Below, one piece after another: positions 400 through 25,609 of a DNA stretch of 37,714 bases. The stretch is from a virus. The notes beneath the pieces are model-generated. The model had not been told where the DNA came from. It ran no database searches and saw only the letters and a program-made list of their open reading frames with translations. A program made the translations under genes and the position numbers. The DNA is taken from positions 1 to 37,714 of the IMG/VR virus record IMGVR_UViG_3300020205_002326; one strand, given 5' to 3'. Positions within the stretch are counted from its first letter, which is position 1. Each line of letters begins with the position of its first letter.

Positions 400-807
400 T
401 TATTTTGTTTCCTTTTTGAACTCTGCCCAAGTTTTATCTCCGATACCATAATATTCTCTAGCGTTTCCCGATTGAATCATGTCAATATTTAGGCACGCTG
501 TTTTGGGGTCATCAATTTTGTCTGATGAATAGATTCTCGCCAAAACACGACCATACTTGTCGTTTTTATCGGGAATGGTATTTACGAAAACCCATTTATG
601 ATTAGTCATCCAATCCTCAACAAACTTCTTTGCTTTTAGACCCAACTCTTTTTCTTTCAAATCTTTTGTTCGTGATTCAGGGGTGTTGATGCCGTATAGG
701 CGGACACGAATTTTGTGGTGCACACTAAAACCTAGGTCAACCATCAAATCGACGGTGTCTCCGTCAACAACCCCAAGAACTGTTGCGCCATACCAAAATC
801 GCTCCAC
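400..807 (-). CDS. Staphylococcal nuclease (thermonuclease) homologue
   Basis: A 135-residue protein with the SNase fold signature in order: VVDGDTVDLMVDLG (first Ca-binding Asp), VRLYGINTPES (catalytic Arg, second Asp-equivalent region and general-base Glu) and DKYGRVLARIY (second catalytic Arg). The family cleaves DNA and RNA with Ca2+. No signal peptide is visible, so it acts in the cytoplasm or is packaged. The start is GTG, chosen because AAGGATTAACC precedes it at good spacing; it follows the stop of the DUF6321-like gene by a few bases. Its length matches the catalytic core of the family with no extra domain. A role in degrading host DNA or recycling nucleotides is possible, but position alone does not show it. 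Confidence 0.9.
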   Translation of the reverse strand: MERFWYGATVLGVVDGDTVDLMVDLGFSVHHKIRVRLYGINTPESRTKDLKEKELGLKAKKFVEDWMTNHKWVFVNTIPDKNDKYGRVLARIYSSDKIDDPKTACLNIDMIQSGNAREYYGIGDKTWAEFKKETK

Positions 808-1651: not shown

Positions 1652-2959
1652 TTAGGATGCTGGTGCGTTATCAAATGTGACTTTGACGAACGACTCTGGT
1701 CGCTTCACAGCGAGGGCGAGGCGTTGCTCAGCAAGAATCACGATTGCGTTACGCACGAAGAAGTCTGCGTGCTGTTCGCTGATTCGGATGCTTGGTGATT
1801 CACGGTCGTAGATTTGTGCTCCCGTACCGAATGCACCGATAAGTGCTGTGCCCTCAGCAATTGCAGGGGTGTCCACGACTGGAATCCTCCACAAACGCTG
1901 TTCGCCACCCATCGCAACAGAGACTGCCACGACGTAAGCGCCGTTGCCATCTTTGCTGAGTTCGATGTCTTCCCAATCGTTCGGGTTAAGAACGATACCC
2001 GATGGCTCGTAGTAAGCCAAGAAGGAAAGGGTTGCGGCACGGCGGACTGCGTCTGCCTTGGTGTCGCTCATACCAGCAGTTTCTGAGTATGTGCCAGCCG
2101 ACCAAGAGTAGGTCTGCACACCTGAGGTGTTCAAGATACCAGTGAGGTTCTCACCAGTTCCTGAACCGTTCAAGATTTGTGCATCTTCCTGCAAACGGAG
2201 ACCGTACATCAACTCGTTGTCGATGATTGAGCGTAGTTGTGGCTCATCAGCAAGAACATTGCGGTGTGCGGCTTCCCAGTGAGCCAAGGTGCGGACAGGA
2301 GCCTGTTGACCAACGAAGGTGAACGAAGACTGAGGCTTTGCGCCGAAAGCATCACCCGAACGCTCGGCGACTGCCGCTGCGTTGTTGGTGAAGCCCGTCA
2401 TGCGGAAGTACTCAATAATCGCTGCGGTCGTGGTGCGACTTGGGAACAAGTCACGGACACGCTTCGTGCGCATTGGTGGGATAACCATTGCATCTCGCTG
2501 AATGGTTCCAAACGAGCCAGGGGTTCCTGTTGGAAGAGCCGAGTACAGATCTTTTACGCTGTAATCGCCCGACTTGTAGGGGGCTGGCATGTTTGCTGAA
2601 CCGCTAGCAAGCAACGACTTGAACTCTGCCGAAGCAAGGAACGATTCGCCGATGGTCTTGGAACGAACTTGCTGAAGTGCACTCTGCAATTCTGAAGTTG
2701 CGTAAGCGGAAGCCTGTGCTACAGAATCCTGTGGCTCCGAAGCCCACTTGTCTGCATCACGCATTGCCTCAAGGCTCTCAACGAGACCCTTGATTTCACG
2801 GATATCAGACATGTTCTTATCGAAGGCTGTCTTCTGTTCTGCTGAAACAACTACAGTTCCATCTTCAATTTTGAAGTTGTCTGCGATTGTCTTATTCTCT
2901 GCCATCTTGGCGCGCATTGCGCCTTGAAGTTCAGTTAAACGACTATTGTCAAATGACAT
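1652..2959 (-). CDS. HK97-fold major capsid protein
   Basis: 435 residues from the chosen start. The first ~90 residues are helical and charged, like the scaffold-like delta domain removed by prohead protease. The rest reads as an HK97-fold capsid protein: a GTPGSFGTIQRDAMVIPP entry segment, TTTAAIIEYFRMTGF, a long spine helix ADEPQLRSIIDNELMYGL, an ILNGSGTGENLTGIL loop, a P-domain around GIVLNPNDWEDIELSKD, and a terminal strand FFVRNAIVILAEQRLALAV. The frame extends to a GTG at 2968, but that GTG touches the AGGAG ribosome-binding site; the ATG at 2959 sits 8 bases from GGAG and is preferred. It is unusually far (about 18 kb) from the protease that should mature it. It forms the icosahedral shell. 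Confidence 0.95.
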   Translation of the reverse strand: MSFDNSRLTELQGAMRAKMAENKTIADNFKIEDGTVVVSAEQKTAFDKNMSDIREIKGLVESLEAMRDADKWASEPQDSVAQASAYATSELQSALQQVRSKTIGESFLASAEFKSLLASGSANMPAPYKSGDYSVKDLYSALPTGTPGSFGTIQRDAMVIPPMRTKRVRDLFPSRTTTAAIIEYFRMTGFTNNAAAVAERSGDAFGAKPQSSFTFVGQQAPVRTLAHWEAAHRNVLADEPQLRSIIDNELMYGLRLQEDAQILNGSGTGENLTGILNTSGVQTYSWSAGTYSETAGMSDTKADAVRRAATLSFLAYYEPSGIVLNPNDWEDIELSKDGNGAYVVAVSVAMGGEQRLWRIPVVDTPAIAEGTALIGAFGTGAQIYDRESPSIRISEQHADFFVRNAIVILAEQRLALAVKRPESFVKVTFDNAPAS

Positions 2960-3100
2960 GATTTTCACTCCTGGTGAATTGATTGGTTGGTGGTTACTTA
3001 TTTTTTATTTCGAAGACTTCGGTAAGCACCTAGTCAGTTACATTTGCTGTATTACGAGAATAACATCAAAGTAGTATCAGAAATGCAACCCCCTATGGGT
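2960..3100 (-). promoter_or_regulatory. Leader region of the capsid gene, probable own promoter
   Basis: This 141-base gap is one of the largest within the minus-strand run. It contains the AGGAG ribosome-binding site and AT-rich stretches, such as TTGATG followed 17 bases later by CAAATG, but no consensus promoter stands out. A separate promoter is expected because the capsid protein must be made in far greater amount than the large upstream proteins. That expectation is the main reason for this call. Confidence 0.3.
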
Positions 3101-5734
3101 TTACTTTGCGTGATATCGCTTTACGACTTGTGGGCAACATTTTTCGGCGTATTTGACTCCGTATTCGCCGTCGTCAAATCCTGCTCGCTTCTTGTTTGTT
3201 TTGCGGTTGCGCCATGGGTGGTCTAACGGAAGTAAATCATTGTCATCAAAATATTTGACATCTTTTGGTTTGTCGGACATCAATAGTGATAAAAACTTGG
3301 AAACACGCTTGTTTGCTGAGGTTTTGTCACCATCTTGAAGACCCCGTAGGTATATATTTTTGAGGTCTCGCAGGTTAGCCCGCTGTGTAGGTTTGGCTTT
3401 GGCGTTGTGTTGACGGACTCGCACGGCAAGGTTATTGATATCGGTGCTTGTAACTGTCGGAGGCTTCTTGCGGGCTTTGGGTACGCCCTTGAATAAAGTT
3501 ACCCCTTCCGACAATGTGCTCAGAGGGTTGTCTGAACCTTTCTTTCTGAAAGCCGAACCTTGTCGTCTTGGGTTAACCCTAGGGCTGTTATCTCCTCGGA
3601 TACCTGTGACACGGTTGTAGTCGGACACATTTGTGCAAGGCATCCAAACAAGTTTTCCATCCCGCGCCGTATAGCGACGAATGCCGATACATCCGAGATT
3701 TCGTGCACGGATACGGGCAGACTCGGGGTCACTGTAAGTATCAGGGTCTGTTGAACGGCTAACAAAGTTAACAAAACCCTTCTCCTCTACGGGTTTTTCT
3801 TTACCTTCAGACGCTTTTGGATTTTTTTGCTTCAATCCACCAAAGATAAACTGCCCAACAGGGTGATTTCTGCTCAGTATCTCCTCAAAATTGGATGATA
3901 TTTTATTGACTACGGTCAAAGTTGGTTTACGATCAACACTCTTCATAAACATTTCCAATGGAAGACGAAGAATGTCTTTTGCATTATCAGCGTCATTCCT
4001 TTCTCTCATCTCTTCATCACCAGAAATACCATTTGCTTTGGAAAAAATAAACCAAGCAGTAAGTTGTTCGGCTGCTCTTTCCATTTCATTGAATTTTGCG
4101 TACTTACTGATTTGAGGGTTTTCTCCCATTAAATCCCTGAGTGCTACAGACAAAAATTCTGCTCTGATTTTTCCGTCACGATCACCATTGTTGGCAATAT
4201 TTTCCATCAGTTTGATTCTGCTAAGAAAGTCTTTTGCTTCTTTGTCTTCAGGATTTTCCTGTACCCATTTATCTAAATTTTGAATTGCAAGAGCGTCCAA
4301 GACATGAGCAAATTCATGAACTGCTGTTGCATACCCTTTCCTATGCTGGAATTCACCAAACGGCATATCTTCTAGCGATTTCCTGATATCTTTTCTAATT
4401 TCGTCATTTGTTTTCTCGTCTCCTTTTCGCAAAGGAACTTCAAAGCGAGCACCAACTTGTTCTGGTAGATCGTTTGGATCTAAAGCATATGTGTTACTAC
4501 GAGCAATACTTAATTGGTCTTCATCATTAAAGTCGTATGCCCATGCTTTGGTGATTACGTTCATTTCTACTGTTGGGACACCAGCATCATCACGCTGTAC
4601 TCTTACAAACCCCTCATTTTCGGCGTGTGGGTCAAAATGGTCAAACATAGCCAAACGAACCACTATCTTTGATTTTTCTCCGTCAGACAAATTGATGTTG
4701 GATAAAATATCCTCCACCCCCTGCATTGCCCCATGGATTTCTGATTCCATGTTTTTGGCTTGTTCATAAAACATTGGGTACTGATTCTGTCTAAGGCTTA
4801 AGTCCTTATCCGTTTCTTTGGCGCCTCTGTTTTCCAAATATCTCCATAGTTCTTTCGTTAGTTTTATTCGTTCGTTGATAACTGAGTTTATTTTTGTAGC
4901 GCGAGCAGATACTTCTCGTGGGGATAGGTCTGGATAACTTTCCGCTATGCCTGCTTTTATTTTTTTTACTCGTTCAGTTTTTTGTTCTTTAGTTTCTTCG
5001 GCAAAATCAATTTTAATGCCGTATTTTTTCTGCATGTATTCCGTCATGCTTTTTCTCGTACTGCCGTATCTTGCCCGAGACTCTTCAGCATTGAGTACGC
5101 GCGGTATACCTCTGTCCGCATCGAGTCCACCAACAAATTTTAAAGGACCTTGCTTTAGTTTGTCCTGCAAAGTTCTTTTAACCGACCGCAACGGTGCAGG
5201 GATATTGTCTTCTCCGTCAGGACCAGTAGTGAATCCGTCACCATCACCATCAGAGTCAGATACACCGCCAATCGGGCGACCTAAAGACTTCCCCGAAAAA
5301 GAACCAGTAACCAACCCCCCGCCTGGTAAAGTTGCGATACCAGTAATAGGTTTCTCGTCAAGTTTTTCCCAACCCTTACGAGGTTTATGGTCGCAAGGCG
5401 TGTAATACCTTTTCCCCGCAAGCATCACGGTGCGAACACCACCACAACCACGAATTTTAGAAATAGACAAAGCGTCAGCACGATTTTCGTAATATGCATC
5501 AGATTTAGTTTCTAAACGCTTGGTGCGTTGAACCATCTTTGGCAAAGGTTTCTTTTTCTTGGCAGCAAGAACTTTCAGATATTCTTCTTTGCCTTTTTTA
5601 ATTGCCTCATACTCTTCATGCGAGGCGCACGGCACCCAGCCCTTTTCGGTTTCGTGTGCTCCTTGGCACCCGAGCATACGTGCGACCCGAAGAGCCTGAT
5701 CTCGAGTTGTCAAATTATCTTTTTCTTTTGCCAT
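3101..5734 (-). CDS. Putative zinc metalloprotease with cysteine-pair repeats and Ca-binding-like loop
   Basis: 877 residues. Around residue 471 there is a zincin motif (AVHEFAHVLDAL, that is HEXXH). About 75 residues later MERAAEQLTAWF offers a glutamate as a possible third zinc ligand, as in gluzincins. Three copies of a cysteine-pair unit occur: LGCQGAH...GWVPC (C23, C36), RGCGGVR...YYTPC (C97, C114) and LGCIGIR...VWMPC (near 681-698). Residues 160-168 read DSDGDGDGF, a calcium-binding-like loop. ATG overlaps the stop of the 85-residue gene (TAATG), so translation is coupled. It is the last large gene before the capsid gene. No signal peptide is seen, so secretion is unlikely; packaging in the head or a role in capsid processing are both open. 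The enzymatic call rests on HEXXH plus the distal Glu. Confidence 0.7.
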   Translation of the reverse strand: MAKEKDNLTTRDQALRVARMLGCQGAHETEKGWVPCASHEEYEAIKKGKEEYLKVLAAKKKKPLPKMVQRTKRLETKSDAYYENRADALSISKIRGCGGVRTVMLAGKRYYTPCDHKPRKGWEKLDEKPITGIATLPGGGLVTGSFSGKSLGRPIGGVSDSDGDGDGFTTGPDGEDNIPAPLRSVKRTLQDKLKQGPLKFVGGLDADRGIPRVLNAEESRARYGSTRKSMTEYMQKKYGIKIDFAEETKEQKTERVKKIKAGIAESYPDLSPREVSARATKINSVINERIKLTKELWRYLENRGAKETDKDLSLRQNQYPMFYEQAKNMESEIHGAMQGVEDILSNINLSDGEKSKIVVRLAMFDHFDPHAENEGFVRVQRDDAGVPTVEMNVITKAWAYDFNDEDQLSIARSNTYALDPNDLPEQVGARFEVPLRKGDEKTNDEIRKDIRKSLEDMPFGEFQHRKGYATAVHEFAHVLDALAIQNLDKWVQENPEDKEAKDFLSRIKLMENIANNGDRDGKIRAEFLSVALRDLMGENPQISKYAKFNEMERAAEQLTAWFIFSKANGISGDEEMRERNDADNAKDILRLPLEMFMKSVDRKPTLTVVNKISSNFEEILSRNHPVGQFIFGGLKQKNPKASEGKEKPVEEKGFVNFVSRSTDPDTYSDPESARIRARNLGCIGIRRYTARDGKLVWMPCTNVSDYNRVTGIRGDNSPRVNPRRQGSAFRKKGSDNPLSTLSEGVTLFKGVPKARKKPPTVTSTDINNLAVRVRQHNAKAKPTQRANLRDLKNIYLRGLQDGDKTSANKRVSKFLSLLMSDKPKDVKYFDDNDLLPLDHPWRNRKTNKKRAGFDDGEYGVKYAEKCCPQVVKRYHAK

Positions 5735-5991
5735 TATTTTTTGTCTTTTTTAGACGATTGCTCTACCTCTGATGCGTATGGCATAGACATCCCATATTCC
5801 TTAAACAGTTCATTGACTTTATCCTGGTTGTCCATAAGGTACAGAACCATTGATTCAATGTCCCCATCTTTCCCGTTTTCGTCTGCGTATCCGTAAGCAG
5901 TGGTAATAATTTTTGAGCGCACTTCCGCATTCTTGACTTTTGCAAATAGTTCGTTTCTGATAGAGGATTTTTGTTCTGGTGTGAGTTTCAT
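5734..5991 (-). CDS. Small charged helical protein, function unknown
   Basis: 85 residues, mostly helical by composition (MKLTPEQKSSIRNELFAKV, DIESMVLYLMDNQDKVNELF) with a lysine-rich tail. It sits in the same kind of slot as the other ~100-residue genes, just ahead of a very large protein, and its stop overlaps the start of the metalloprotease gene by one base. An AAGG at the very end of the preceding gene serves as ribosome-binding site. I do not recognise the family. A chaperone or partner role for the large neighbour is inferred from gene order only. Confidence 0.6.
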   Translation of the reverse strand: MKLTPEQKSSIRNELFAKVKNAEVRSKIITTAYGYADENGKDGDIESMVLYLMDNQDKVNELFKEYGMSMPYASEVEQSSKKDKK

Positions 5992-5995
5992 GATG

Positions 5996-8900
5996 TTAAA
6001 CCCTTACCCTTGGCGCTCTTGGTCGCCTCGTTCTTTCTACTCCTGCAACTTTTTGGTCAGCGAACTTTAGCACTCCTCCACCGAACGGAATGTTGCTCTT
6101 GAACCATTGTTTCACATATTCCGCCCTAGCCTTATCATCAACGTCATCTACAGCGAAAATAATGTCTTGATGGGAAAACTTAGTCCCACCTTCTGCTTGT
6201 TTCAGAATTGAAGCAATTCTTGCGTATTCTGTATCGTTTGATATGAGACCGCCTGCCCCAAATTCTTCGTAGAACCGCATTTCCGATTCAAGAGCCCGCA
6301 ATCTGGCTCGGTCAACTCCCCCAGATTGTTTAAAACCGACTCGAGCCCAAACATACTGTCCGTCATCCATTGCGTTCACCTTGGCTTTGGTAATACCTAT
6401 TTTACTTAAATAAAGAAAAGCATGTTGATTGTAAATGGTTTGAATGTCTGCGCCTCTGTCTAGTTTGCTTCGCACATTCATGCCTTGTTGATACACCTGC
6501 TGGTCGCCCATATAAAATAACACTCTGGAGGAAGACCCGATGCGCGCTCTAATAACTTGCCCTTCGGCGTTAACTTCATTGAATACCACTTCAACACTAT
6601 TTCCATTTACTTGCGCAACGGCGTTATAGAATTTCCCGTTTTTCCCTTTGATTAACTTGTGACTATAAGCATCTTTTACATATGCTTCCTTTTGCTGCGA
6701 TGACAAACCGCGCCATTTTTCTGGTGTCATATCTTCATAAGGAGCCCCACCCTGTGGGTATCTTTCTTTCAGGTACTTAGCAAGTTTCCCCTGCCTGCGA
6801 TTAATTGCTCCATCAATTTGCTCTTTTATTTTTGCTTTGACAGCCTGTGGGGTTGGTTTCGGAATATCAGTTGCATCAGGATTGAACTCGTATCCTTGGC
6901 TGATTCTTTCTACTGTTTTGCGCACCTCTGCATCTAGAGAGCCAAGTACCTCAATCACTCCCTCTAAATTTCCCATCTCTTGTTTGATTAAACCAATTCG
7001 TTCCATTGTCTGCACTCTGCCGGCGCCTATTTCTGCAGCACCGACACCAACAGGTTGCCTCAACTGAGAAAACTTTTCTTCCAATTGATTGTTTAGTTGT
7101 TCAAGTCTTGCTTTAGCGGTATCAATGCTTCCACCGCCGACTGAGCGCAACAAGTCTTTTTTCGCTTGAGCAATCTCAGCGTCAACTCGAGCAGGCACTC
7201 GCGCTCCAGGATCATTTCGTAATTTAGACGCAATCTCAGCAAGCCGTTTTTGATAACTTCTTAAAGCGTTTTGGCGTCCTTCATTTTGATAAAAGTTTGC
7301 TTGGTCTACAGCCAAAGAAAACTTATTTAATTTTTCTGCATCTGCGATTTCTAACAGTATTCGTTCTATTGCTTCTTCTTGTGAAGCGGTGAATTTCGCT
7401 ACTTCAATTTTGGGTGCTTTGTGCTTAAGGGCATCTGGTGCCTTCCTGACATCTTTTTTGTCTGGTGCAATAAATGGTGCGTCTATCGGGTCAACCGCTG
7501 ACGCATTGCGATTGAGAACATTTTTTTTGTGCCATGCGATTGCATCTTCACGGTTATCGAAACCCCTTTTTGTTTGAGCGGGTCGTCCATGAATAACAAA
7601 CCATTTGTTAGTGGCAATTTGCTGGTCAATTATGTCGCCGTTGTCGTGGGTAATAATCGTGTTAGGTCCTTGATTCCATCCTGCTGGCAGGGGATTTCTT
7701 GCTGCAGGAGCCGGTGCAGGTGTTATCGGTCGTTTCTCCAAATTTTCAGAAACGGGTCGTTTGCGACCTTCATTCGCTATACGAACCTCATTCCATCCGT
7801 CTCTATAACCTTCAATAATTTCCTTGACTCTTGCGACACTGAATTCTTCTGGTCCTGCGTTGGAATCCATGGTCATTCTGACGAAGTCTCTGTCGGAAAT
7901 TTCACCTCTTGCTATTGCTGTGTTTATTTTGCGTAGGTATTCTTCGGCTTGCTTCATGCTTCGACGAGCGGCTTGCACCTTCTTGTCTTTTTCTCTTGGG
8001 TCTTGAGGAAAATTGCGAGCGTCATTAACAATCATTATTCGGTCATTGGGAATGTACTCATCTCTGAGCACCTCCATAAAAGATTGGTCGCCCGCAACTC
8101 GATTAAGATTGACTTCTTGCCTTTCGTTTCGGCGCCTTGGTTGAGGCGCGGGGGGTGGCTGGCTGGGCAATCGGTCAGCAATTTCAATCTTTCTAACTAG
8201 TTCATCAAAATTACGAGCCTGTATCAGTCCTCGTTTCCGAGGGTGCGAAGCAGAAAGCCCTAGCACTCTGTCGTCTTCTCGGTCTGTTGTAATTAGCCAA
8301 TCGCCTTTTCTCCATTGTCCATTGCCAATTTGTCTAAAATCTTTTGGCGGGTTTCCAATGTCAATCAACATTCTGTCCCTTATCCGCCGTGATATCTCCG
8401 CCTCTTCTTCAATTAATCTCTCAATTCGTTGCTCTGTGTTTTCTTTGGGTTTTGGGCGACGAGGTTTAACAACTTTTGGTTCAACAACTGCCTCAGGTTT
8501 TTGGACTGGTGCTTTCGGCTTGTTCGTCGCCTCAACAACGGCACGGCGACGGCGACGAGCAGGCGCTTCACCAGTACGAGGTGCACCTGGATCCTCAATC
8601 TCTCTGTCCATTCTCCGCTGTTCCGACTCGCGAAGATTTCCGCCACGACGCCTTGCAGGTTGCCGTCTACGAGCAGGAAGAGCGGGGGCTTCACGCCTTT
8701 TCAACTCCGCCATTACTCGCTTGTAATCATCACTATCTCTGCCACCAGTAGCGTTTTCCAACTCCGCACGCATTTCTTCCAAAACTTCTGTCGGTTCGGC
8801 TGCGAGGAGATTCCTTTCTTCACGAACAGGACGAGCAGGTGCTCGCCGTCTGCGCTGTGGGCGTGGAGCATCGGGTGTTGATTCGCTAATTGCTTCAGGT

Positions 8901-9367
8901 GCGTCAACTGATGGCGGTCTCGCAGTTACTGTCCTCCGTCGCCCCCCACTGGGAGTTGATGTTTCTCCGCCGTCCAATCTTTCCGCAACACCACGCAATC
9001 CACGCTCGAGACGACCAGCGCGTGCGTCTTGGGGATTTAAACGAGCGAGAATTCTTCGTTCTCGACGGGCAATACGGCGACCCCTGCGAGCATCATCAAC
9101 ATTCTCCAACCGTGAACCAATGTCGGAAATCTGGTTAGCAATTCGTCGTGCGATACCCCAACCACAAGACCTGCCGAAACGGTCAGTAATTTGTCCGCCG
9201 TAGCGAGTCCCCACAGGGCATCGCCAGCCACCTCGACGGTTCGTTCCAGGAATAGACAAACTCGGGTCCCAAATAGCACGAACAGCCTTCACCTCATAAG
9301 ACATAGTTGAAGTGTTTCTTTCAGTTAAGAAAGATTTCGCTTTGAAGTCAACAATATTCTGGAGCAT
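5996..9367 (-). CDS. Giant putative virion effector: Cx17C N-terminal module, basic linker, coiled coil, possible GNAT-like C-terminus
   Basis: 1123 residues in five visible parts. Residues 7-21 carry the FKAKSFLTERNTS element. An IWDP segment and CPVGTRYGGQITD follow (C50 and C68, 17 residues apart). Next comes an arginine-rich helical stretch (RRGRRIARRERRILARL) and about 250 residues of Pro/Arg/Ala-rich low complexity, including GNLRESEQRRMDRE near 243-256. A middle part has two small W-containing blocks and long coiled-coil helices (about 640-840). The C-terminus has VIRARIGSSSRVLFYMG, a glycine-containing QQGMNV turn and GQYVWARVGF near residue 1005, a pattern resembling GNAT-like acyltransferase folds. 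The last assignment is tentative. AAGG precedes the start. It is the paralogue, by its first 100 residues, of the 886- and 898-residue proteins. Confidence 0.7.
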   Translation of the reverse strand: MLQNIVDFKAKSFLTERNTSTMSYEVKAVRAIWDPSLSIPGTNRRGGWRCPVGTRYGGQITDRFGRSCGWGIARRIANQISDIGSRLENVDDARRGRRIARRERRILARLNPQDARAGRLERGLRGVAERLDGGETSTPSGGRRRTVTARPPSVDAPEAISESTPDAPRPQRRRRAPARPVREERNLLAAEPTEVLEEMRAELENATGGRDSDDYKRVMAELKRREAPALPARRRQPARRRGGNLRESEQRRMDREIEDPGAPRTGEAPARRRRRAVVEATNKPKAPVQKPEAVVEPKVVKPRRPKPKENTEQRIERLIEEEAEISRRIRDRMLIDIGNPPKDFRQIGNGQWRKGDWLITTDREDDRVLGLSASHPRKRGLIQARNFDELVRKIEIADRLPSQPPPAPQPRRRNERQEVNLNRVAGDQSFMEVLRDEYIPNDRIMIVNDARNFPQDPREKDKKVQAARRSMKQAEEYLRKINTAIARGEISDRDFVRMTMDSNAGPEEFSVARVKEIIEGYRDGWNEVRIANEGRKRPVSENLEKRPITPAPAPAARNPLPAGWNQGPNTIITHDNGDIIDQQIATNKWFVIHGRPAQTKRGFDNREDAIAWHKKNVLNRNASAVDPIDAPFIAPDKKDVRKAPDALKHKAPKIEVAKFTASQEEAIERILLEIADAEKLNKFSLAVDQANFYQNEGRQNALRSYQKRLAEIASKLRNDPGARVPARVDAEIAQAKKDLLRSVGGGSIDTAKARLEQLNNQLEEKFSQLRQPVGVGAAEIGAGRVQTMERIGLIKQEMGNLEGVIEVLGSLDAEVRKTVERISQGYEFNPDATDIPKPTPQAVKAKIKEQIDGAINRRQGKLAKYLKERYPQGGAPYEDMTPEKWRGLSSQQKEAYVKDAYSHKLIKGKNGKFYNAVAQVNGNSVEVVFNEVNAEGQVIRARIGSSSRVLFYMGDQQVYQQGMNVRSKLDRGADIQTIYNQHAFLYLSKIGITKAKVNAMDDGQYVWARVGFKQSGGVDRARLRALESEMRFYEEFGAGGLISNDTEYARIASILKQAEGGTKFSHQDIIFAVDDVDDKARAEYVKQWFKSNIPFGGGVLKFADQKVAGVERTRRPRAPRVRV
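8601..8641 (-). repeat. Linker DNA repeat, copy 1 (in the 1123-residue gene)
   Basis: 41 bases matching 14862-14902 at 39 positions. They encode GNLRESEQRRMDRE in the Arg/Pro linkers of two different large proteins; both mismatches are synonymous third-codon changes. This is a shared module within otherwise divergent linkers and a possible site for recombination between the genes. Confidence 0.8.
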
Positions 9368-9371
9368 CTGT

Positions 9372-9683
9372 TTAAGCCTTAAAACTTTTTTTGCTTGGAA
9401 GTGACTTGATTCGGTTTTTATACATTTCTTCAGTTACCTGCCCGTCAGAACTGTATTGTGCGGACATTGCATTGATGCGGTAAAGGATGTATTCCATACC
9501 GCTTCCTTCTAAAGGAATCTCGTTTCGTGCCGAAGATTCTGAAAGGATTTCAATAAGTTGGTCAACAAGTTCCTTATCGGAAGCGTGTATTTCTACAAGT
9601 CCATCAATGTTTTTGCCAGCGCAAGATCCATACACTTTATTAGTAAATGGATCCATGAATTGACCTATGAAAAACTCTTTCAT
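9372..9683 (-). CDS. Small partner-type protein, function unknown
   Basis: 103 residues. It begins MKEFFIGQFMDPFTNKVYGS, a short beta-hairpin-like opening that loosely resembles the starts of the 104- and 100-residue genes elsewhere in this operon, and continues with a helical acidic part (ASDKELVDQLIEILSES). The ribosome-binding site AAAGG lies in the last codons of the preceding kinase-like gene, 5 bases before ATG. It precedes the 1123-residue gene by only a few bases. It has no recognised family. Gene order suggests a small partner of the large protein on one side of it. Confidence 0.6.
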   Translation of the reverse strand: MKEFFIGQFMDPFTNKVYGSCAGKNIDGLVEIHASDKELVDQLIEILSESSARNEIPLEGSGMEYILYRINAMSAQYSSDGQVTEEMYKNRIKSLPSKKSFKA

Positions 9684-9685
9684 GA

Positions 9686-12346
9686 TTACCTTTGATTAGT
9701 TGGAATTAGGTTGACTATCAGATCTTCGGCACTGCGAAGGTTTGCCAGACTTCGCACCATGCCATCATAAATTCTTCCTGCTCGTTCTTTACTTGAGTCA
9801 GTCTTGCTTATTTTTTGCAATCCGTCTTTTATGAATTGTTCACGACCGACAGCAAGTGTTCGTTCTGTTTGCGCAACAACCTGTCTGTATACTTCTTGAA
9901 TCCGTGCATAAACTTCACGTCTTTGCGCTGGATCCATTTGAGGTAGACCCGTGCGCATTTTTTCAATGAGGTCTGAATCCATTCTAAAACCCCGTACGTA
10001 ATTCTCAAATCCTCCTCCGTGCGCTCTCCCAGCCCAACCCAAGTCCATGGGTACAACATGCGCGAACTTTTGTCCATCTGGTGTTTCCACGACACGACCC
10101 ATCCCGTTTCCTGCGTGTCGGTCGCTAACACCGAGAATGTAATTGGCTAGAACATTGCCCAATCTTTCAGGGAAACCTTTATCAGGTAGTCCGTCTAGTT
10201 CGGATTTATTGAAGTCAAAGCCACGATTAGGGGGACCTATTATCGCCCCTTCGGGAACATCATTGTGGGCTAGAGGCACCATTATGTAAGGAGTTCCTTT
10301 TCGGATTGTTCCGAGTGGCTTGCGTACATCCGCTTCAAGTTTTCCGTCTTGAATTGCTCCGTCCTCCAAAATACCAACAGCAGCCAAGTAGTTCCACCCA
10401 ATGAGTTCGCCGACATTGTCGTAAGGTTTGGCAGCCTTAAAAACCCACCCTTGGTTAGTTGGATTTCCATCTTCGTCACGCAAAAAGTAAACTCTAGTTA
10501 CACCTACCGCCCCACCGTTGGGTGATACTTTTTTGAAACGCTTGTTCACGTCTTGTGGATCTGATGAAGCGTTTGCCTCAATAGCGATGTGCATGTATTT
10601 TGCTGGAACCTTTTGTATGTCTCCACCATTTTTTATATGGTCAATCGCTTTTTGTTCCGTATTAATCGTTCGGTCTTCTTCTGAAACAAATTTTCCGATT
10701 GGAGAGTTCCGTCTATCTATCTTCAATTTGCCATGCGCATTTTTGCTTCTAGCGAATTTACGGAAAGGAGATTTTCTTTGTCGTGGTGCTTGCGGTACTT
10801 GCGGTGTTGCTGGTGACGGTGGGGTGGTTGTTGACGGCTCTGGCGCACTTGGGAAATCTGCTGAGATGCCCGACGGTGGCGCTGCTGGTGGTCTTACTTC
10901 TGGCGGTGCTCCGCCCCCATCACCAGGTGTCACGAAACCCGCATTGTTTGGTATTGGACGGCGAGGGCGACGAGGTCGTGCTGGTCTTACGGGTCGTGCA
11001 GGCGGTGGTTCGGGAACATCATCAGGTGTTGGTCTACGAGTAGCAGAACGCCCTGCGCCTTGTGCTGTTGACTGCCTACGGCGACGACGGTTGTTTCGTG
11101 GGCGACGAGCCTGTGGTGTTGGTGGTTCAAAATCTTGTGGTGCGCTACGACCGTGAGCGTCTTTCCAAGCCTCACGAAGATTTTCTTTGTTGATTGCGTA
11201 CCATTCACGGCGAGTCAACATTCCCGCATTACCGCCAGCCAATCGAATTTCCCGAACTCGTTTTGCGTACTCGTTGTATTTTCGTAATACGTAAGGTTTG
11301 AAGTCTTCTGTTTCTCCTGCGTCGGACGCGTCTTGTGGTGTGAGTACATCAACGTTCCTCGGTCGTGGGGCGACTTCTGGGCGTGGTCTTCGTTCGGGTC
11401 TTGGGGTTGGTTCTGTTTCTGGTGTTACATCTCGTCGCCTGTTGCGCGGAACTCGTGTAGATGGCGCTTGCGCTTCTGGTTCTTCAACATTCTGGGGTCG
11501 TCGGCGAACATCATTGATGATTCTTCCGACGGTGCTTTCGTTAAATACTCGCTGCGCAAAATCTCTAGCCTCATCACGATTCGGTCGATTTCGTGGTCTA
11601 GTTGGTTTTGGGGTTGCATCACTTCCACCGTCAAGGCGTCGAGCGATGTTACGCAAACCACCCTCAACACGACCTGTTTCTGCAACACCACCAAGCCGTC
11701 TAATCATTCGAGCATTGCGGCGGTCAAGGCGACGCTTTCGTTTGTCGTCATCTCGTTGTTCTAATCTCTCACCGATGTCGGCAATTTGGTTAGCAATACG
11801 CCTTGCTATCCCCCACCCGCATGAACGACCGAATCGGTCTGTTATTTGTCCACCGTATCTTGTACCAACAGGGCATCGAAAACCGCCACGACGGTTCGTA
11901 CCAGGAATCGCCAAACCTGGATCCCAAATAGCACGAACACCTTTGATTTCAAAATGTGCCGACGAACGAGTTTGGTCGGATATGAAGGATGATGCTTTGA
12001 AAGTTAAAACATTTTTGAATTCTTCGTTAGAGAACTCAGATAACAACACTTCAGAAATAGAAAGAACGGGAAGTTTTGGTAGTTCAATTTTTTCAAGAGA
12101 CAGGTTCATGACTTTCTTTTGTAATGCTGTCCCTGATGGGCTCGGTCCTTCAATGATTTTTGATGCGTCCATTGATTGAACTAGTTCAGGTTTCGTAATC
12201 GGTGTTTTTCCGTATTCTTGACGCAAGATGACAGCAAGGTCTTTGGCAGGTTCCGACATGGGCTCAAAGGTTGAGCCGTTGGGTGTGGTTCTAACAACCA
12301 TAAATGGCGTGTTGTCACGGTTTTTGATAATGAAAACTAGGTTCAT
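9686..12346 (-). CDS. Giant putative virion effector with PI3K/HipA-like kinase-fold C-terminus
   Basis: 886 residues. The first ~80 residues (MNLVFIIKNRDNTPFMVVRT...) resemble the small partner proteins of this operon and look fused on. At 116 the FKASSFISDQT element begins, then IWDP and CPVGTRYGGQITD with C158 and C176. A basic helical region and a long Pro/Arg-rich linker follow. The C-terminal ~300 residues carry kinase landmarks: WVFKAAKPYDN (Lys near 635), GELIGWNYLA (Glu helix), YILGVSDRHAGNGM (DRHxxN loop near 742-748) and HVVPMDLGWAG (metal Asp near 767). This layout fits PI3/4-kinase-like, FAM20C-like or HipA-like folds; I cannot decide the substrate. GGAAAG lies before ATG. All catalytic positions I can place are kept, so it may be active. 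Confidence 0.8.
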   Translation of the reverse strand: MNLVFIIKNRDNTPFMVVRTTPNGSTFEPMSEPAKDLAVILRQEYGKTPITKPELVQSMDASKIIEGPSPSGTALQKKVMNLSLEKIELPKLPVLSISEVLLSEFSNEEFKNVLTFKASSFISDQTRSSAHFEIKGVRAIWDPGLAIPGTNRRGGFRCPVGTRYGGQITDRFGRSCGWGIARRIANQIADIGERLEQRDDDKRKRRLDRRNARMIRRLGGVAETGRVEGGLRNIARRLDGGSDATPKPTRPRNRPNRDEARDFAQRVFNESTVGRIINDVRRRPQNVEEPEAQAPSTRVPRNRRRDVTPETEPTPRPERRPRPEVAPRPRNVDVLTPQDASDAGETEDFKPYVLRKYNEYAKRVREIRLAGGNAGMLTRREWYAINKENLREAWKDAHGRSAPQDFEPPTPQARRPRNNRRRRRQSTAQGAGRSATRRPTPDDVPEPPPARPVRPARPRRPRRPIPNNAGFVTPGDGGGAPPEVRPPAAPPSGISADFPSAPEPSTTTPPSPATPQVPQAPRQRKSPFRKFARSKNAHGKLKIDRRNSPIGKFVSEEDRTINTEQKAIDHIKNGGDIQKVPAKYMHIAIEANASSDPQDVNKRFKKVSPNGGAVGVTRVYFLRDEDGNPTNQGWVFKAAKPYDNVGELIGWNYLAAVGILEDGAIQDGKLEADVRKPLGTIRKGTPYIMVPLAHNDVPEGAIIGPPNRGFDFNKSELDGLPDKGFPERLGNVLANYILGVSDRHAGNGMGRVVETPDGQKFAHVVPMDLGWAGRAHGGGFENYVRGFRMDSDLIEKMRTGLPQMDPAQRREVYARIQEVYRQVVAQTERTLAVGREQFIKDGLQKISKTDSSKERAGRIYDGMVRSLANLRSAEDLIVNLIPTNQR

Positions 12347-12470: not shown

Positions 12471-12773
12471 TTATTTGTTGTTTAGTTTTTTGTGTCCAAT
12501 AGACAAAAGCATATTGTCAATCTTCTCTTTGCCAGAGCCCTCGTACTCAAAAACCTGAGTATCAAAGTATGAATACCCGTGCAACATATGCTCCAAGTTC
12601 GCTATTTTCGGCGAATTCTTTTTGGCATACAAAAAGTTTTCGTTATCAAGTTTGTCTGCCTCACGGTTTTGCGAGTAATACTTGAGGATTCCCTTGTCGT
12701 CCTCAACTATGACCAAGGGTGACGATTTAACCGAATCGTCTTTGGAGGTGATAATGGCTGCCCTCATGTTCAC
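12471..12773 (-). CDS. Small partner-type protein, function unknown
   Basis: 100 residues. It starts at a GTG that overlaps the stop of the 898-residue gene (GTGA); an ATG two codons later at 12767 is an alternative. The opening (AAIITSK...PLVIVEDDKGILKYY) parallels that of the 104-residue gene (ALVTPME...PYVLLEGDQGIFAVV): a strand, a proline, a hydrophobic strand, two acidic residues and a glycine turn. The rest is helical and charged. The pair therefore looks like divergent members of one small family interleaved with the large proteins. Function unknown. Confidence 0.6.
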   Translation of the reverse strand: MNMRAAIITSKDDSVKSSPLVIVEDDKGILKYYSQNREADKLDNENFLYAKKNSPKIANLEHMLHGYSYFDTQVFEYEGSGKEKIDNMLLSIGHKKLNNK

Positions 12774-21169: not shown

Positions 21170-23308
21170 TTACATTGTGTCCATAATATTGAGCAATGCG
21201 TCAAACGCTTCTTCTGCCACATCGCTGATTTGAACTTGAACACCCTCTTCCGTTACCTCTGATTTGATTTGATAATAATCCAAAATTGGATCTAAGAGTT
21301 CTTTCATTTCGTACAGGGTGTAGTCCGAAGAAGATACGAGAAGCGTTTCTTTCTCAACTTCCGACATGGACTTTTTCTCAATATCTGAGTTTGCTCCTCC
21401 AGCGTTCAATACCTCTTTTAGTAGGTTGAACGCATTTTGCAGTTTTGCCATGTTGCGAGAATTAATGACCCGTCCTGCTTTCACCTCCATGTCCTCATCG
21501 GCATCCTTACCCATGAGTTCGGAAATAGCCGCCATCAACATCGGAATCATGCTTTGAGGAGTCATGCCCTCTCCGCCGCCACATCCGCAGTCGTGTTCTT
21601 TTTCTGAGTCGTAGTAAGGCATTTCTATGACGCCGCCCTTGTCGTCGTCGCCTTCCATCACCCAATTATCTTTATCTGCCATGTAGTTGATGAAATCTGG
21701 TTCCGAGTTCATGAACTCCTTAAGAGCCTCGTAAGCCTTTTCGTTGCCCTCATCTTCGTTCTCGAATTCAACATCTTCAAGTTGCATCTCTTCCTCACCC
21801 TTTGGCTTGTCGTCATCGGCGAGACGGGTAGCAAGTTGTTCCATCATTTCGTATCCTTTTTCCTCGCTGTCAAGGAAATCAAAGATTGATTTGAGTTCTT
21901 GTTCGTTGAGCGAATCCAAGGATTTACCTGGCTTGAGTATTGAACCCAAGCGCTCATTGAACTCTGAGTCGCTCCAATTGTTCTTCTTCAGTTTCCCACG
22001 GCAGTTTTTCATGCCTGGATGATGGCATCCTTCGTTCGGCCAGAGACCAGTTGTTTCGTGATGCAGCCAAGCACAGATGTTGCTCAGTGGGTACAACTCG
22101 GGATGGTTTGCAAGAATGACTCGGCATCGTCGGAAACCGCCTGGCTTCTTCATGATTGGGCGCCAATAGCGCAACAACTTTTCAAGGTTGCCTCTACGAG
22201 GACCATAGCCTCGTGTGCGTGCAGTGACGATTTCTTGTGGAATGATTCCACCAAGAGGGTCAGCCTTTTCTGGGGACTTTGGTTTTACGCCTGCTGGAAC
22301 TTGTGGGTCTTGCTCCATTCGGTAGCGGTCTTCAAAGCGTCGTTCGCCGTCAGAACCGCTTGGCTTGTCGCCCTCAACATTGACATATACGGTCTGCGGT
22401 TTGACTCTTGTCGGTTCGCCAATCATGAACTTGTCGTCTTCGTAATGGTAAGAAGCGCGCAGAGTGACTATTTCACCCGTTTCCCCGCGATGGTCAAAAA
22501 TGACGCTGTTGGGGTCGGACTCTCGAATTCTTACTGACCCACCGAACTTTTTTGCCAAGGCGTAGGGGAGATTTTCCCTGCGTCCCTTGTCGGGCATCGG
22601 AGCATTGACAGCGTCATCGTTGCCGTCTTCTTCTGACTCTTTGCGAGGCTTCTCTTCTTCTTCAGGCTTTTGTCTTGCCATACTGCTAGCCAAGATACGC
22701 ATAAGCAAAGAACGCCCCTGCTCAGTGAGTTTGCCTTTTTCATCTCGCATTTGAGCCTTAATGCTCTCGTTATTGTCTTGTCCCTCAAAAGATTTGATTG
22801 AAATAGTCCCAGTGAGTTGGTTTGCACCGTGAAGAACAGGGCTTGCTTCGTAAAGTTCAACTTTTTTGAGAACATTGGCTTGACGCTTGGGGTCGAAATC
22901 GGCATCTAGTGTTTTGTAGCCGATTGACCATTCTTGCTCTTCGCCAAAGAAAGCAACATCAGCAAAAGCCTGTCGTCCTCTTTCTGACTTCAGATTGAAT
23001 TGAACTTTGGCGTAGAGACCGCCAATCCCAGCGGCACGCATCTTCATGGGCAATCGAGGGTCGGACGATGGGACTTCATACATTTCAAGAACTTTGCCGA
23101 TTGGCTCATTCCAGTTGTGACCCCATACAACACGGGGTTTACGCCTCTTTAGGCTCTCGTTGAAAGCGCCAGGTACGATGATGTCACCAACAGAGTCTTT
23201 GTTCCCAATACCTGCGACGAAGCATTCAACAACACCAAGTGCTTCGTCAATATTGAATTGACCCTGCAGCGCTTTATATTGTTGTGTTTCTGATAGTGAT
23301 GTTGGCAT
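21170..23308 (-). CDS. HK97-type prohead protease with long C-terminal extension
   Basis: 712 residues from ATG 23308, chosen because GGAG lies 5 bases upstream; the frame extends 10 codons further but without a signal. Residues 20-165 are a U35/S78-type prohead protease: NKDSVGDIIVPGAFNESL, VVWGHNWNEPIG (His64), EEQEWSIGYKT (Ser128) and KKVELYEASPVLHGAN (Glu154 or Glu151). The extension contains a PRRGNLEKLLRYWRP block with an ICAWLHHETTGLWPNEGCHH cysteine/histidine cluster, an acidic stretch, and a helical C-terminus. It should trim the capsid protein's N-terminus during maturation. Typical family members are around 200-250 residues, so about 500 residues are extra. They may be a scaffold, may recruit cargo, or both. 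Confidence 0.88.
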   Translation of the reverse strand: MPTSLSETQQYKALQGQFNIDEALGVVECFVAGIGNKDSVGDIIVPGAFNESLKRRKPRVVWGHNWNEPIGKVLEMYEVPSSDPRLPMKMRAAGIGGLYAKVQFNLKSERGRQAFADVAFFGEEQEWSIGYKTLDADFDPKRQANVLKKVELYEASPVLHGANQLTGTISIKSFEGQDNNESIKAQMRDEKGKLTEQGRSLLMRILASSMARQKPEEEEKPRKESEEDGNDDAVNAPMPDKGRRENLPYALAKKFGGSVRIRESDPNSVIFDHRGETGEIVTLRASYHYEDDKFMIGEPTRVKPQTVYVNVEGDKPSGSDGERRFEDRYRMEQDPQVPAGVKPKSPEKADPLGGIIPQEIVTARTRGYGPRRGNLEKLLRYWRPIMKKPGGFRRCRVILANHPELYPLSNICAWLHHETTGLWPNEGCHHPGMKNCRGKLKKNNWSDSEFNERLGSILKPGKSLDSLNEQELKSIFDFLDSEEKGYEMMEQLATRLADDDKPKGEEEMQLEDVEFENEDEGNEKAYEALKEFMNSEPDFINYMADKDNWVMEGDDDKGGVIEMPYYDSEKEHDCGCGGGEGMTPQSMIPMLMAAISELMGKDADEDMEVKAGRVINSRNMAKLQNAFNLLKEVLNAGGANSDIEKKSMSEVEKETLLVSSSDYTLYEMKELLDPILDYYQIKSEVTEEGVQVQISDVAEEAFDALLNIMDTM

Positions 23309-23328
23309 TGTTCTCCAAAAATGTTTGT

Positions 23329-23358
23329 TTATAAACAATAAACCATTTGGAGCGCCAA
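23329..23358 (-). promoter_or_regulatory. Probable promoter for the protease-effector operon, over a 14-bp palindrome
   Basis: On the minus strand TTGGCG (23358-23353) and TTATAA (23334-23329) are 18 bases apart, ahead of the protease ribosome-binding site. The -10 lies inside a perfect palindrome, TTGTTTATAAACAA (23325-23338), which could be an operator. Together with the hairpin just upstream it suggests the portal gene and the protease gene are separate transcription units. Confidence 0.45.
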
Positions 23359-23398: not shown

Positions 23399-25609
23399 CT
23401 ACTCCGAGTCAAACCCAAAACGAAGACGGCAACGACAATTGAAGGTGAGCGCGGGTGGGGCTATCGGATCTCCTGGGAATCGCAAAGTCAACCCGTCAAC
23501 GACAAATCCATCTCCGAATTTCACCGTCTTTCCTTCAAGAAATTTGTGAGCGGTGCGAACACGAGAGTCTTTTCTTGTCAGCCATGTTTTCGTGAAACTG
23601 CCTTGGCTGTCTTTGCCTGCCAGGTAGACACCGCCATTGTATGAAGACTGTGCTTCATGTTCGGCAATGTCTCGTTTGCGTTTGGATATCAATTTTAGGA
23701 ATATCGCAATCAAAGCCAGTCGCAGAAGAACCGATCTTTCTTCTTGATTTTCTTCCATCAACGCAACGGCAATAGCCGCAGCGATTTCTGCTCCTGTTGT
23801 TGTATTCGCTTCTTGAACCCTTGCTATTTGCTGTTGGGCGAGTTTCTCAACCTCTTGAGGTTCAAGAGTTACCTGCTCACTGGTTCTAGAAGCAACATAT
23901 TCTTTTGCGTCCTGATAAATGGAAATAATGATTGGCTCCAAGTCGTCCGCAAGTTGCTTGTTCCAAACCTCAGGGTCGAAAATCATGTCAACCGTCAAAG
24001 CACCTGTTGCTAACGCTTTCGCCCCTCGTTTACCAAATGCTTTCTCCATGACAACTCTTTGTTGTCTTTCAAACAAACGCTCAAGTGCTCGGTCAAGAAT
24101 TTCAGTCCACCTGTCGGTATCTGTGTCCGCCTTGGTTTCAAGTTCATTAAGGAACTTGAGTTGCATTTCGCTCTGAATCTTTTCAAACTCAGAAAGTTGC
24201 TGGTCTGGGGTCAGAGCCGCTGTTTCAGTAGGTGCTTGGGCTGGCATTTCTGGAGCAGGAACTGGTGTAGGCGGAGCAGGTTGAGGCATTTCCATAGCGC
24301 CTTCCTGCGGAGGAAGACCACCTGGTACGGCATTTGGATCAACTCCAGCCATGTCAACTGGTTGTTGTTCCTCAGGTTTAAATGGCTTCTCCGTGTTGGC
24401 GATAGGTGTGAGGTTCGGATTGGAGAGAAGACTGTCGGCAAGTTCTGATTCAACTTTTTTGCGCCCTGTTGCGTCTCGATATTCGTTCAGGCTAATCAAT
24501 CCTTGTTGAAATTCGTCCATGACATAGCGCTCTCGTTCCTGTTTAGCAAGAATGAGAATCGGAATGTCGTTGGTGTCAAAATCAACGTAGTATCTATCGT
24601 CAAGTTCGTCAAACGCACGAGCGAGAGTGTGTAGATGTGGAGCCATTGTCTCCATCCAAAAAACTCTTAGTTCTTCTGAAGCATTTGAGAAAGTTCTTCC
24701 AGCGGCATTACCAATAACGGACTCAGGGACACCAAAGGCGGCGAAGATTTCATTCTTTTGAATTTCTCGCATTTGCGTGTATGCGGCATCTCTTGGCGAC
24801 GCCGAAGTATCAACATAATCAACACCCGCCTCTGAAGCGATAACAGTTGTTGACCCTGTTTTTGAAAGGTTTCCACGGAAACGGTTTTTGAGTTCTTGTT
24901 TGTCGTCATCTTCCATGTCGCCACGAACAACCAACAATCCGCCAGGTCGCCCATCGTTCAGCAAATAGTTTCGGTTATAGAGTTTTGACAAAGTTTCCAA
25001 CTCAATTGCAATACCCGCGGACTCCATTGGGGTCATTGAAAGATACGGGTCTAATGGGTGTGGTCGTCTAATCCAACAGACATCTTCTGGCTTGAGAGTG
25101 AACTTTGTTCCGTTGCGCATATCCACTTCAAAACCTGCCACGAACTTTTTGGGGTCAGGGATTGGTGCTGTGTGTTGAGGCGGAAGAAGTTGTAGTGCAA
25201 TAATTTTTCCGTCACGAGAACGAACTTTTTCAATAAAAACACCTCTCGTGCTCATCAAGAGTTGTGCCGAGATTCTGTACCTGAACGCGAAAGAGTTTTC
25301 TCCGTCGTTGGATTTTGAGTTGAATATTTCTAGTAGCGGTTTATTATCTTTGGTTAGTTCACCTCGTTGGTCGTTGCCTTTTCGCAAAATGACAGGCAAG
25401 CGTGCTTGATTGCCTGCGATTACATCTATGCATCGAAAAACCCACGTAACTTTTTGCATACCATCTCGGTACGCTCGCTCTATGTCCCATCCATCTTTGT
25501 AAGGCTTGCCTGCTCTTTGTGTATCAAATGCAATCGGAGCGCCGGGATTGGACAAGGCTTTTTCACTGCTGTTCCTGAGATCTTTATTGTTGTTGCTGTT
25601 CCAAGCCAT
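23399..25609 (-). CDS. Portal protein fused to Mu gpF-like head morphogenesis domain
   Basis: 736 residues. Residues 1 to about 410 are an HK97-type portal: QKVTWVFRCIDVIAGNQARL, LMSTRGVFIEKVRS, QLLPPQHTAPIPD, MESAGIAIELETLSKLYNR, and the stem/crown part with MREIQKNEIFAAFGVPESVI. A Pro/Ala/Gln linker (about 415-470) leads to a helical segment and then a Mu gpF-like C-terminus: TKTWLTRKDSRVRTAHKFLE, GDGFVVDGL, RFPGDPIAPP and FNCRCRLRF. In most phages these are two proteins. The ATG overlaps the stop of the small membrane protein gene (TAATG). It forms the dodecameric DNA channel at one vertex; the MuF part probably faces the head interior or DNA path. Prediction is firm for both domains. Confidence 0.92.
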   Translation of the reverse strand: MAWNSNNNKDLRNSSEKALSNPGAPIAFDTQRAGKPYKDGWDIERAYRDGMQKVTWVFRCIDVIAGNQARLPVILRKGNDQRGELTKDNKPLLEIFNSKSNDGENSFAFRYRISAQLLMSTRGVFIEKVRSRDGKIIALQLLPPQHTAPIPDPKKFVAGFEVDMRNGTKFTLKPEDVCWIRRPHPLDPYLSMTPMESAGIAIELETLSKLYNRNYLLNDGRPGGLLVVRGDMEDDDKQELKNRFRGNLSKTGSTTVIASEAGVDYVDTSASPRDAAYTQMREIQKNEIFAAFGVPESVIGNAAGRTFSNASEELRVFWMETMAPHLHTLARAFDELDDRYYVDFDTNDIPILILAKQERERYVMDEFQQGLISLNEYRDATGRKKVESELADSLLSNPNLTPIANTEKPFKPEEQQPVDMAGVDPNAVPGGLPPQEGAMEMPQPAPPTPVPAPEMPAQAPTETAALTPDQQLSEFEKIQSEMQLKFLNELETKADTDTDRWTEILDRALERLFERQQRVVMEKAFGKRGAKALATGALTVDMIFDPEVWNKQLADDLEPIIISIYQDAKEYVASRTSEQVTLEPQEVEKLAQQQIARVQEANTTTGAEIAAAIAVALMEENQEERSVLLRLALIAIFLKLISKRKRDIAEHEAQSSYNGGVYLAGKDSQGSFTKTWLTRKDSRVRTAHKFLEGKTVKFGDGFVVDGLTLRFPGDPIAPPALTFNCRCRLRFGFDSE

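What the first reader, a model, noticed from the sequence alone, without database searches (positions are those of the whole stretch)
3101..5734. HEXXH protease with repeated LGC...PC units and a Ca-binding-like loop in the same cassette
The protein has HEFAH plus a distal Glu candidate, three cysteine-pair repeats (spacings 12, 16 and 17 residues) flanking the catalytic part, and DSDGDGDGF. The repeats lie at both ends, so they may be capsid-attachment or folding units equivalent to the Cx17C module of its neighbours. A protease packaged with kinases would extend the effector idea; alternatively it may mature the other proteins.
Basis: partly seen in the sequence, partly recalled or inferred. 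Interest (0 to 1): 0.62.

Follow-up and report, generated by a model that had tools for sequence, protein, structure and literature searches.

The report
Swappable cargo protein of phage head
The gene is a phage head-region protein with fixed cysteine-rich end modules and two slots into which related phages plug quite different enzyme domains; in this phage one slot holds a probable zinc protease, which makes it look like a swappable payload probably delivered into the bacterium with the phage DNA.

Summary
The 877-aa protein (minus strand) has HEFAH at residues 473-477, three cysteine-pair units (gaps 12, 16, 17) and DSDGDGDGF, and lies next to the major capsid gene. The LGC...PC unit is Pfam DUF3721; the C-terminal domain is a divergent DUF5824.

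Related phage contigs carry the same chassis in the same place with other contents. Some have no insert at all (275-450 aa). Others hold different domains at two fixed sites: A, between units 2 and 3, and B, after unit 3. Contents include a second HEXXH protein, an Arr-like and a DUF3626-like ADP-ribosyltransferase, and a ParB-like domain. Every insert starts with the LGxPIG...DGDGDGF leader and empty sites lack it, so the acidic loop marks the insert. One leader-plus-insert is 92.5% identical in DNA between two phages whose flanking chassis is only 47-50% identical. Inserts hold 1 cysteine in 4,117 residues.

In unrelated phages DUF3721 and DUF5824 are attached to prohead proteases. Best reading: a modular platform loading swappable effectors into the head; here probably a lethal-factor-type (gluzincin) metalloprotease, not the phage's maturation protease. 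Packaging, injection and catalysis are inferred; structure prediction was inconclusive.

The parts
3101..5734 (-). 877-aa chassis-plus-cargo protein
5618..5707 (-). Cys-pair unit 1 (C23/C36), Pfam DUF3721, residues 10-39
5387..5464 (-). Cys-pair unit 2 (C97/C114); below the Pfam threshold here, DUF3721 in relatives (three stretches each in L140 and L143)
5189..5287 (-). insert leader SLGRPIGG..DSDGDGDGF..GEDNIP, residues 150-182; present before every insert, absent at empty sites
3785..5188 (-). site A insert (cargo), residues 183-650, no cysteine, GC 39.5% against 46-50% in the chassis
4304..4318 (-). HEFAH, residues 473-477, with D480 three residues downstream
4067..4081 (-). distal ExxAE (E552, E556), candidate third zinc ligand, in register with ExxAE of eight other phage proteins
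3629..3721 (-). Cys-pair unit 3 (C682/C700), DUF3721-like, between sites A and B
3104..3502 (-). C-terminal domain (FKGVPK...DNDLLPxxHP...CC), divergent DUF5824; site B just before it is empty in the window
5734..5991 (-). 85-aa protein directly upstream, conserved whatever the cargo
1652..2968 (-). major capsid protein directly downstream
21170..23338 (-). the phage's own prohead protease (Peptidase_S78)
23399..25609 (-). portal with C-terminal Phage_Mu_F domain

Best explanation
The protein is a phage head-region chassis (three DUF3721 Cys-pair units plus a DUF5824-like C-terminus) with two permissive insertion sites. Related phages fill these with interchangeable enzyme cassettes, each starting with an LGxPIG...DGDGDGF leader. 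Shown: same chassis and locus with different or no inserts; horizontal movement of one leader-plus-insert cassette; confinement of nearly all cysteines to the chassis. Inferred: the chassis modules bring the protein into the prohead, the cargo stays in the head and is ejected with the DNA, and the cargo acts on host proteins early in infection. In the window the cargo is a probable gluzincin metalloprotease of the lethal-factor / phage-polyvalent type (ligands H473, H477, E552; base E474). It is an optional payload, not the phage's maturation protease.
For: Same-locus alleles with different cargo or none. Sharp DNA junctions: window nt 1-446 match L003 at 88%, and the match resumes at nt 1945 at 90%. 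Cassette transfer: L130 vs L032 site B cassette 92.5% nt, chassis 47-50% nt, MCP 73% nt. Leader in all 10 inserts over 100 aa of the 9 unsplit alleles scored and in none of their 8 empty sites; also present in the L026, L030, L032 and L130 inserts. Cargo GC 39.5% against 46-50%. Cys 1/4,117 aa in cargo. DUF3721 joined to a prohead-protease-like domain in Pseudomonas phage KPP23, and DUF5824 joined to prohead protease plus MCP in Roseobacter phage CRP-821. Zincin: HEFAHxxD...ExxAE in register with eight phage proteins; a profile of these nine matches lethal-factor and PPEP metalloproteases through the distal Glu. Published precedent for zincins as packaged phage effectors (PMC5512222; PMC5576092).
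Against: No proteomics or virion data. AlphaFold models are poor (mean pLDDT 39 and 45) and the fold searches inconclusive. No close homologue of the cargo was found. The profile match is driven mainly by the HEFAH helix, by which the comparison sequences were chosen; with that motif masked the score falls to noise, although the best local match is still the distal helix in register. The KPP23 DUF3721 and S78_2 matches and the CRP-821 DUF5824 match lie below the curated cut-offs.
Confidence: 0.66

Rival explanations
1. The HEXXH domain is a morphogenesis protease that processes this protein or its neighbours inside the prohead, with no role in the host.
For: Zincins of polyvalent proteins are proposed to self-process before or after packaging (PMC5512222). 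The gene lies in the head module.
Against: No other allele in the same genomic position has this domain, and many have no insert. The phage encodes an S78 prohead protease.
Confidence: 0.12
2. A polymorphic toxin system for competition between bacteria, with toxin tips and matching immunity proteins, like the MuF toxins of temperate phages.
For: Swapped toxin-like domains (ADP-ribosyltransferases, metallopeptidases) on a constant head-linked part; MuF toxins carry the same classes (PMC5576092).
Against: No cargo-specific small gene: the 85-aa upstream protein is conserved whatever the cargo and the next gene downstream is the MCP. Cargo is internal and can be double, not a C-terminal tip. No relative in the bacterial genome collection by the patterns used.
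Confidence: 0.1
3. The insert is an inactive, structural domain; the HEXXH is a relic or a coincidence and the insert only adds bulk.
For: HExxH alone occurs in 1.3% of shuffles; the structure is unresolved.
Against: HEFAHxxD and ExxAE co-occur in the right order and spacing; site A of L033 holds another HEXXH protein with the same downstream SxYA..E..AE motif.
Confidence: 0.08
4. The chassis is a virion decoration or tail-attached protein displayed outside, and the inserts are surface enzymes.
For: Cysteine confinement and acidic Ca-type loops are also common in exposed proteins; the acidic leader fits a Ca site (general knowledge).
Against: Location between prohead protease and MCP, and attachment of the modules to prohead proteases elsewhere, point to the inside of the prohead. 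ADP-ribosyltransferase and ParB-like inserts have intracellular targets (general knowledge).
Confidence: 0.04

Closest known systems
Phage polyvalent proteins (Iyer et al. 2017, PMC5512222)
   Same: Multidomain phage proteins combining zincin metallopeptidases, ADP-ribosyltransferases and ParB-like domains near virion genes, predicted to be injected; one widespread phage zincin clade has Asp three residues after HEXXH, as here.
   Different: Here a short Cys-rich chassis stays constant while whole leader-plus-enzyme cassettes come and go at two fixed internal sites, with an empty form; no curated polyvalent Pfam model scores significantly in the window protein.
MuF polymorphic toxins (Jamet et al. 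2017, PMC5576092)
   Same: Head-linked constant part joined to swapped toxin domains, metallopeptidases and ADP-ribosyltransferases among them.
   Different: The constant part is DUF3721/DUF5824, not MuF (this phage's MuF is fused to the portal); cargo is internal, sometimes double; no cargo-matched immunity gene found.
T4-type internal proteins with a capsid targeting sequence (PMC3012670)
   Same: A diverse set of packaged anti-host proteins that share only a packaging element.
   Different: The shared element is a large chassis, not a short N-terminal peptide. DUF5824 does occur in T4-like marine phages.
Lethal-factor / Pro-Pro endopeptidase / MtfA zinc metalloproteases
   Same: Order and spacing of HEXXH and distal ExxAE; profile match in solved structures.
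   Different: Overall sequence unrelated, with long extra helical segments; the predicted targets are bacterial.

Membership tests
Pfam DUF3721 (PF12518) | score above the curated cut-off | tested here: met
   45.6 bits against 27, E=5.6e-12; all 16 records of the first set above cut-off
Pfam DUF5824 (PF19141) | C-terminal domain scores above the curated cut-off | tested here: not met
   No hit for the window domain itself; its homologue in L130 (45% identity) scores 28.5 against 25, so it is a divergent relative
Gluzincin metallopeptidase (lethal-factor / polyvalent MPTase type) | HEXXH with a downstream Glu helix (third ligand) | tested here: met
   H473, H477, E552 invariant across nine aligned phage proteins; sequence level only
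Gluzincin metallopeptidase (lethal-factor / polyvalent MPTase type) | zincin fold with the ligands brought together | tested here: inconclusive
   pLDDT 39 and 45; Foldseek and VIA without reliable match
Gluzincin metallopeptidase (lethal-factor / polyvalent MPTase type) | significant family-model match of the window protein alone | tested here: not met
   Only M90 at E=0.05-0.12, below cut-off
Phage polyvalent proteins | several unrelated enzymatic domains in one polypeptide, in a virion context | tested here: inconclusive
   One enzymatic domain in the window; L002 has two different inserts and L028 an ART plus a helical insert
Phage polyvalent proteins | packaged and injected with the DNA | not testable with these tools
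   needs virion proteomics
MuF polymorphic toxins | MuF domain in the same protein | tested here: not met
   No MuF hit in the protein; the MuF domain is in the portal fusion
MuF polymorphic toxins | cargo-matched immunity gene next door | tested here: not met
   Upstream ORF conserved across all cargos; MCP directly downstream

The most novel reading that the evidence does not exclude
A general packaging platform in a clade of uncultured phages: a constant Cys-rich head chassis with two docking sites, loaded with mobile leader-plus-enzyme cassettes that recombine between phages and are injected as interchangeable anti-host effectors; the acidic LGxPIG...DGDGDGF leader acts as the hinge or release element of each cassette.
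Probability: 0.5. Interest if true: 0.76.

Novelty: new variant of a known kind. Interest (0 to 1): 0.63.

Why it matters
It shows natural cassette exchange of enzyme domains inside a head-module gene, with the empty state and single and double occupancy all observed and one clear horizontal transfer, so packaging chassis and cargo can be told apart by sequence alone. It suggests a function for two domains of unknown function (DUF3721, DUF5824), for which no paper was found in the held library, and it makes packaging testable by adding a reporter to a naked chassis. It also gives a way to find new anti-host enzymes: whatever follows the leader.

Tried and rejected
Maturation protease: rejected as main role because the domain is absent from all other alleles and an S78 protease is present. 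Acidic loop as a chassis Ca site: rejected, it travels with inserts. Cargo-matched immunity gene: looked for, not found. Close homologues of the zincin: none in viral contigs by peptide patterns, in phages by tblastn up to E=10, or in the PDB by single sequence. A looser HEFAHxxD DNA pattern gave 84 stretches, used only for motif comparison; phmmer to the cargo was not significant beyond the motif. Profile-profile alignment covered only the 19 columns of the motif, so it is circular. AlphaFold on the insert alone and on the core with eight distant homologues: low confidence; Foldseek and VIA gave no reliable match (a zinc-bound lethal factor entry appears at Z=2.4, which is noise level). Chassis in bacterial genomes: none by the patterns used. 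VIP2-type ART for the L030/L032 insert rests on motif reading and a non-significant ART-PolyVal hit (E=0.21).

Full report
OBSERVATION. The ORF 3101-5734 reads on the minus strand as 877 aa. It holds C23/C36, C97/C114, C682/C700 (gaps 12, 16, 17), CC at 866-867, DSDGDGDGF (DGDGDG from residue 162) and HEFAH at 473-477. The LGC...PC unit is Pfam DUF3721 (E=5.6e-12); three stretches score in relatives L140 and L143. The HExxH plus ExxAE combination occurs in 0.02% of shuffles, with the caveat that the motifs were chosen after seeing the sequence.

CONTEXT. The window is a 37.7-kb IMG/VR virus record. The order on the minus strand is portal fused to a Phage_Mu_F domain (23399-25609), S78 prohead protease (21170-23338), a cassette of large proteins, the finding, then the MCP (1652-2968). 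The gene is the last before the capsid gene.

THE SAME CHASSIS WITH OTHER CONTENTS. Scans of viral contigs with the whole protein, the C-terminus, the N-terminus and the middle piece gave about 20 distinct alleles; in nine loci checked, a homologous MCP follows directly. Site A lies after ...VTGSFSGK and site B after unit 3. Empty at both sites: L022/23/24 (379 aa) and the more distant L138/139, L140-142, L143, L144-146, L147/148, L149, L150-152 (275-450 aa). Site A contents: window HEFAH protein; L033 HEWSH protein; L017 DUF3626-like ART (27% identity over 218 columns to WJZ48507 of phage DSL-LC01, E=2e-11; that protein hits DUF3626 at 7e-10); L002 phrog_3170 (2e-41); L028/29/31 Arr-type ART (PF12120, 26.8 bits over the 25 cut-off); L030 and L032/34 probable ART (motif only). 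Site B contents: L001 unknown; L002 ParB-like (phrog_1033, E=7e-4); L003, L032 and L130 a small module with RSxxITEG...IPTV; L015, L028 and L030 a helical-looking domain; L026 unknown. In L030 and L032/34 the gene is split into two ORFs overlapping by four bases after the site A insert.

CASSETTES MOVE. DNA identity between the window and L003 stops at nt 446 of the gene and resumes at nt 1945 of the window gene and nt 463 of the L003 gene. Each insert begins with LGxPIG...DxDGDGDGF...DxIP or a close variant; empty sites never have it. The site B cassette of L130 and L032 is 92.5% identical in DNA although their chassis ends are 47-50% and their MCPs 73% identical; the same cassette in L003 is only 63% identical to L032 although those chassis are 70-79% identical. 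This shows horizontal movement of leader plus insert as one unit. The window insert has GC 39.5% against 46-50% in the chassis.

CYSTEINES. Each of the nine unsplit alleles scored has exactly eight chassis cysteines; fifteen inserts together have 1 cysteine in 4,117 residues, against about 40 expected from the other proteins of these loci (inserts are not all independent, and virion proteins are cysteine-poor in general). In the neighbouring large proteins at 5996, 9686, 12770 and 17514 the only cysteines are the Cx17C pair. Disulfide or zinc is not decided.

WHAT THE CHASSIS MODULES DO ELSEWHERE. DUF5824 is found with S78 protease and MCP in one polypeptide of Roseobacter phage CRP-821, in a protein close to the portal of DSL-LC01, and in proteins of T4-like marine phages and Salinibacter phages. 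DUF3721 is found N-terminal to a Peptidase_S78_2-like domain, between a head-morphogenesis protein and the MCP, in Pseudomonas phage KPP23 (both hits below curated cut-offs, with tblastn E=2e-4). The window C-terminus itself does not score as DUF5824 but is 45% identical to the L130 domain that does. A DUF3721 chassis (L143) shares its first 70 residues with the Cx17C neighbour at 9686-12346 (E=1e-10). Together these point to prohead-associated modules; this is inference from context.

THE INSERT IN THE WINDOW. HEFAHVLD is followed about 65 residues later by SKYAKFNEMERAAEQ. The SxYA..E..AE motif has a 0.1% chance per 300 residues. In an alignment with eight other phage HEFAH proteins the invariant columns are H473, E474, F475, A476, H477, D480, E552, A555, E556. 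The profile hits lethal factor (1.7e-7), Pro-Pro endopeptidase (4e-4) and MtfA (9e-3) through the distal Glu, but the comparison set was chosen by the HEFAH motif, and masking it removes most of the score. Published phage zincins have Asp three residues after HEXXH and a Glu in the second helix (PMC5512222). I therefore call it a probable gluzincin; fold prediction failed to settle it (pLDDT 39 and 45; inconclusive).

MECHANISM. Most likely the chassis enters the prohead with the scaffold or portal region, the insert rides along, and after adsorption the protein is ejected with the DNA, where the protease cuts host or defence proteins. Shown: modularity, swapping, location. Inferred: packaging, ejection, catalysis, target. 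A maturation role is unlikely because the domain is optional and the phage has its own S78 protease. An immunity-type toxin system is unlikely because no neighbouring gene was found to co-vary with cargo.

NOVELTY. Packaged multi-enzyme effectors and MuF toxins are known kinds (PMC5512222, PMC5576092), and T4 internal proteins share only a packaging signal (PMC3012670). The two-slot chassis with leader-delimited mobile cassettes and an observed empty state is a new variant. No paper naming DUF3721 or DUF5824 was found in the held library.

Noticed in passing
window 5996-9367, 9686-12346, 12770-15466, 17514-19355 (-): Large neighbours share a Cx17C module (e.g. CPVGTRYGGQITDRFGRSC) as their only cysteines and differ in the C-terminal part between related phages (HipA/PI3K-like kinases and others): probably a second cargo chassis.
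   Followed up: partly
window 5734-5991, 9372-9683, 12471-12773, 17203-17517 (-): An 85-104 aa ORF sits directly upstream of several of the large cassette genes; the first is conserved whatever the cargo, perhaps a chaperone or loading adaptor.
   Followed up: partly
L002:15582-16403 and L003:14653-15474: A free-standing 273-aa protein starts with the same LGTPIG...DGDGDGMFTLGDEDNVPI leader: the leader can also head a separate protein.
   Followed up: no
L030:8977-11618, L032:8977-11543: Chassis split into two ORFs overlapping by 4 bases after the site A insert, the second with a new start of about 46 aa.
   Followed up: no
L006 (phage DSL-LC01) 15529-25398: A 3,289-aa protein near the portal gene; by eye it has ART-like, kinase-like and DLLPxxHP segments, i.e. 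a giant polyvalent candidate.
   Followed up: no
window 15467-17206 (-): 579-aa neighbour with six cysteines including its own CPAGFEFGGRFTDNRFSTC unit; phrog_23735 at 4e-16, unknown function.
   Followed up: no
window 400-807 (-): By eye a thermonuclease-like protein two genes after the MCP, conserved in related contigs.
   Followed up: no
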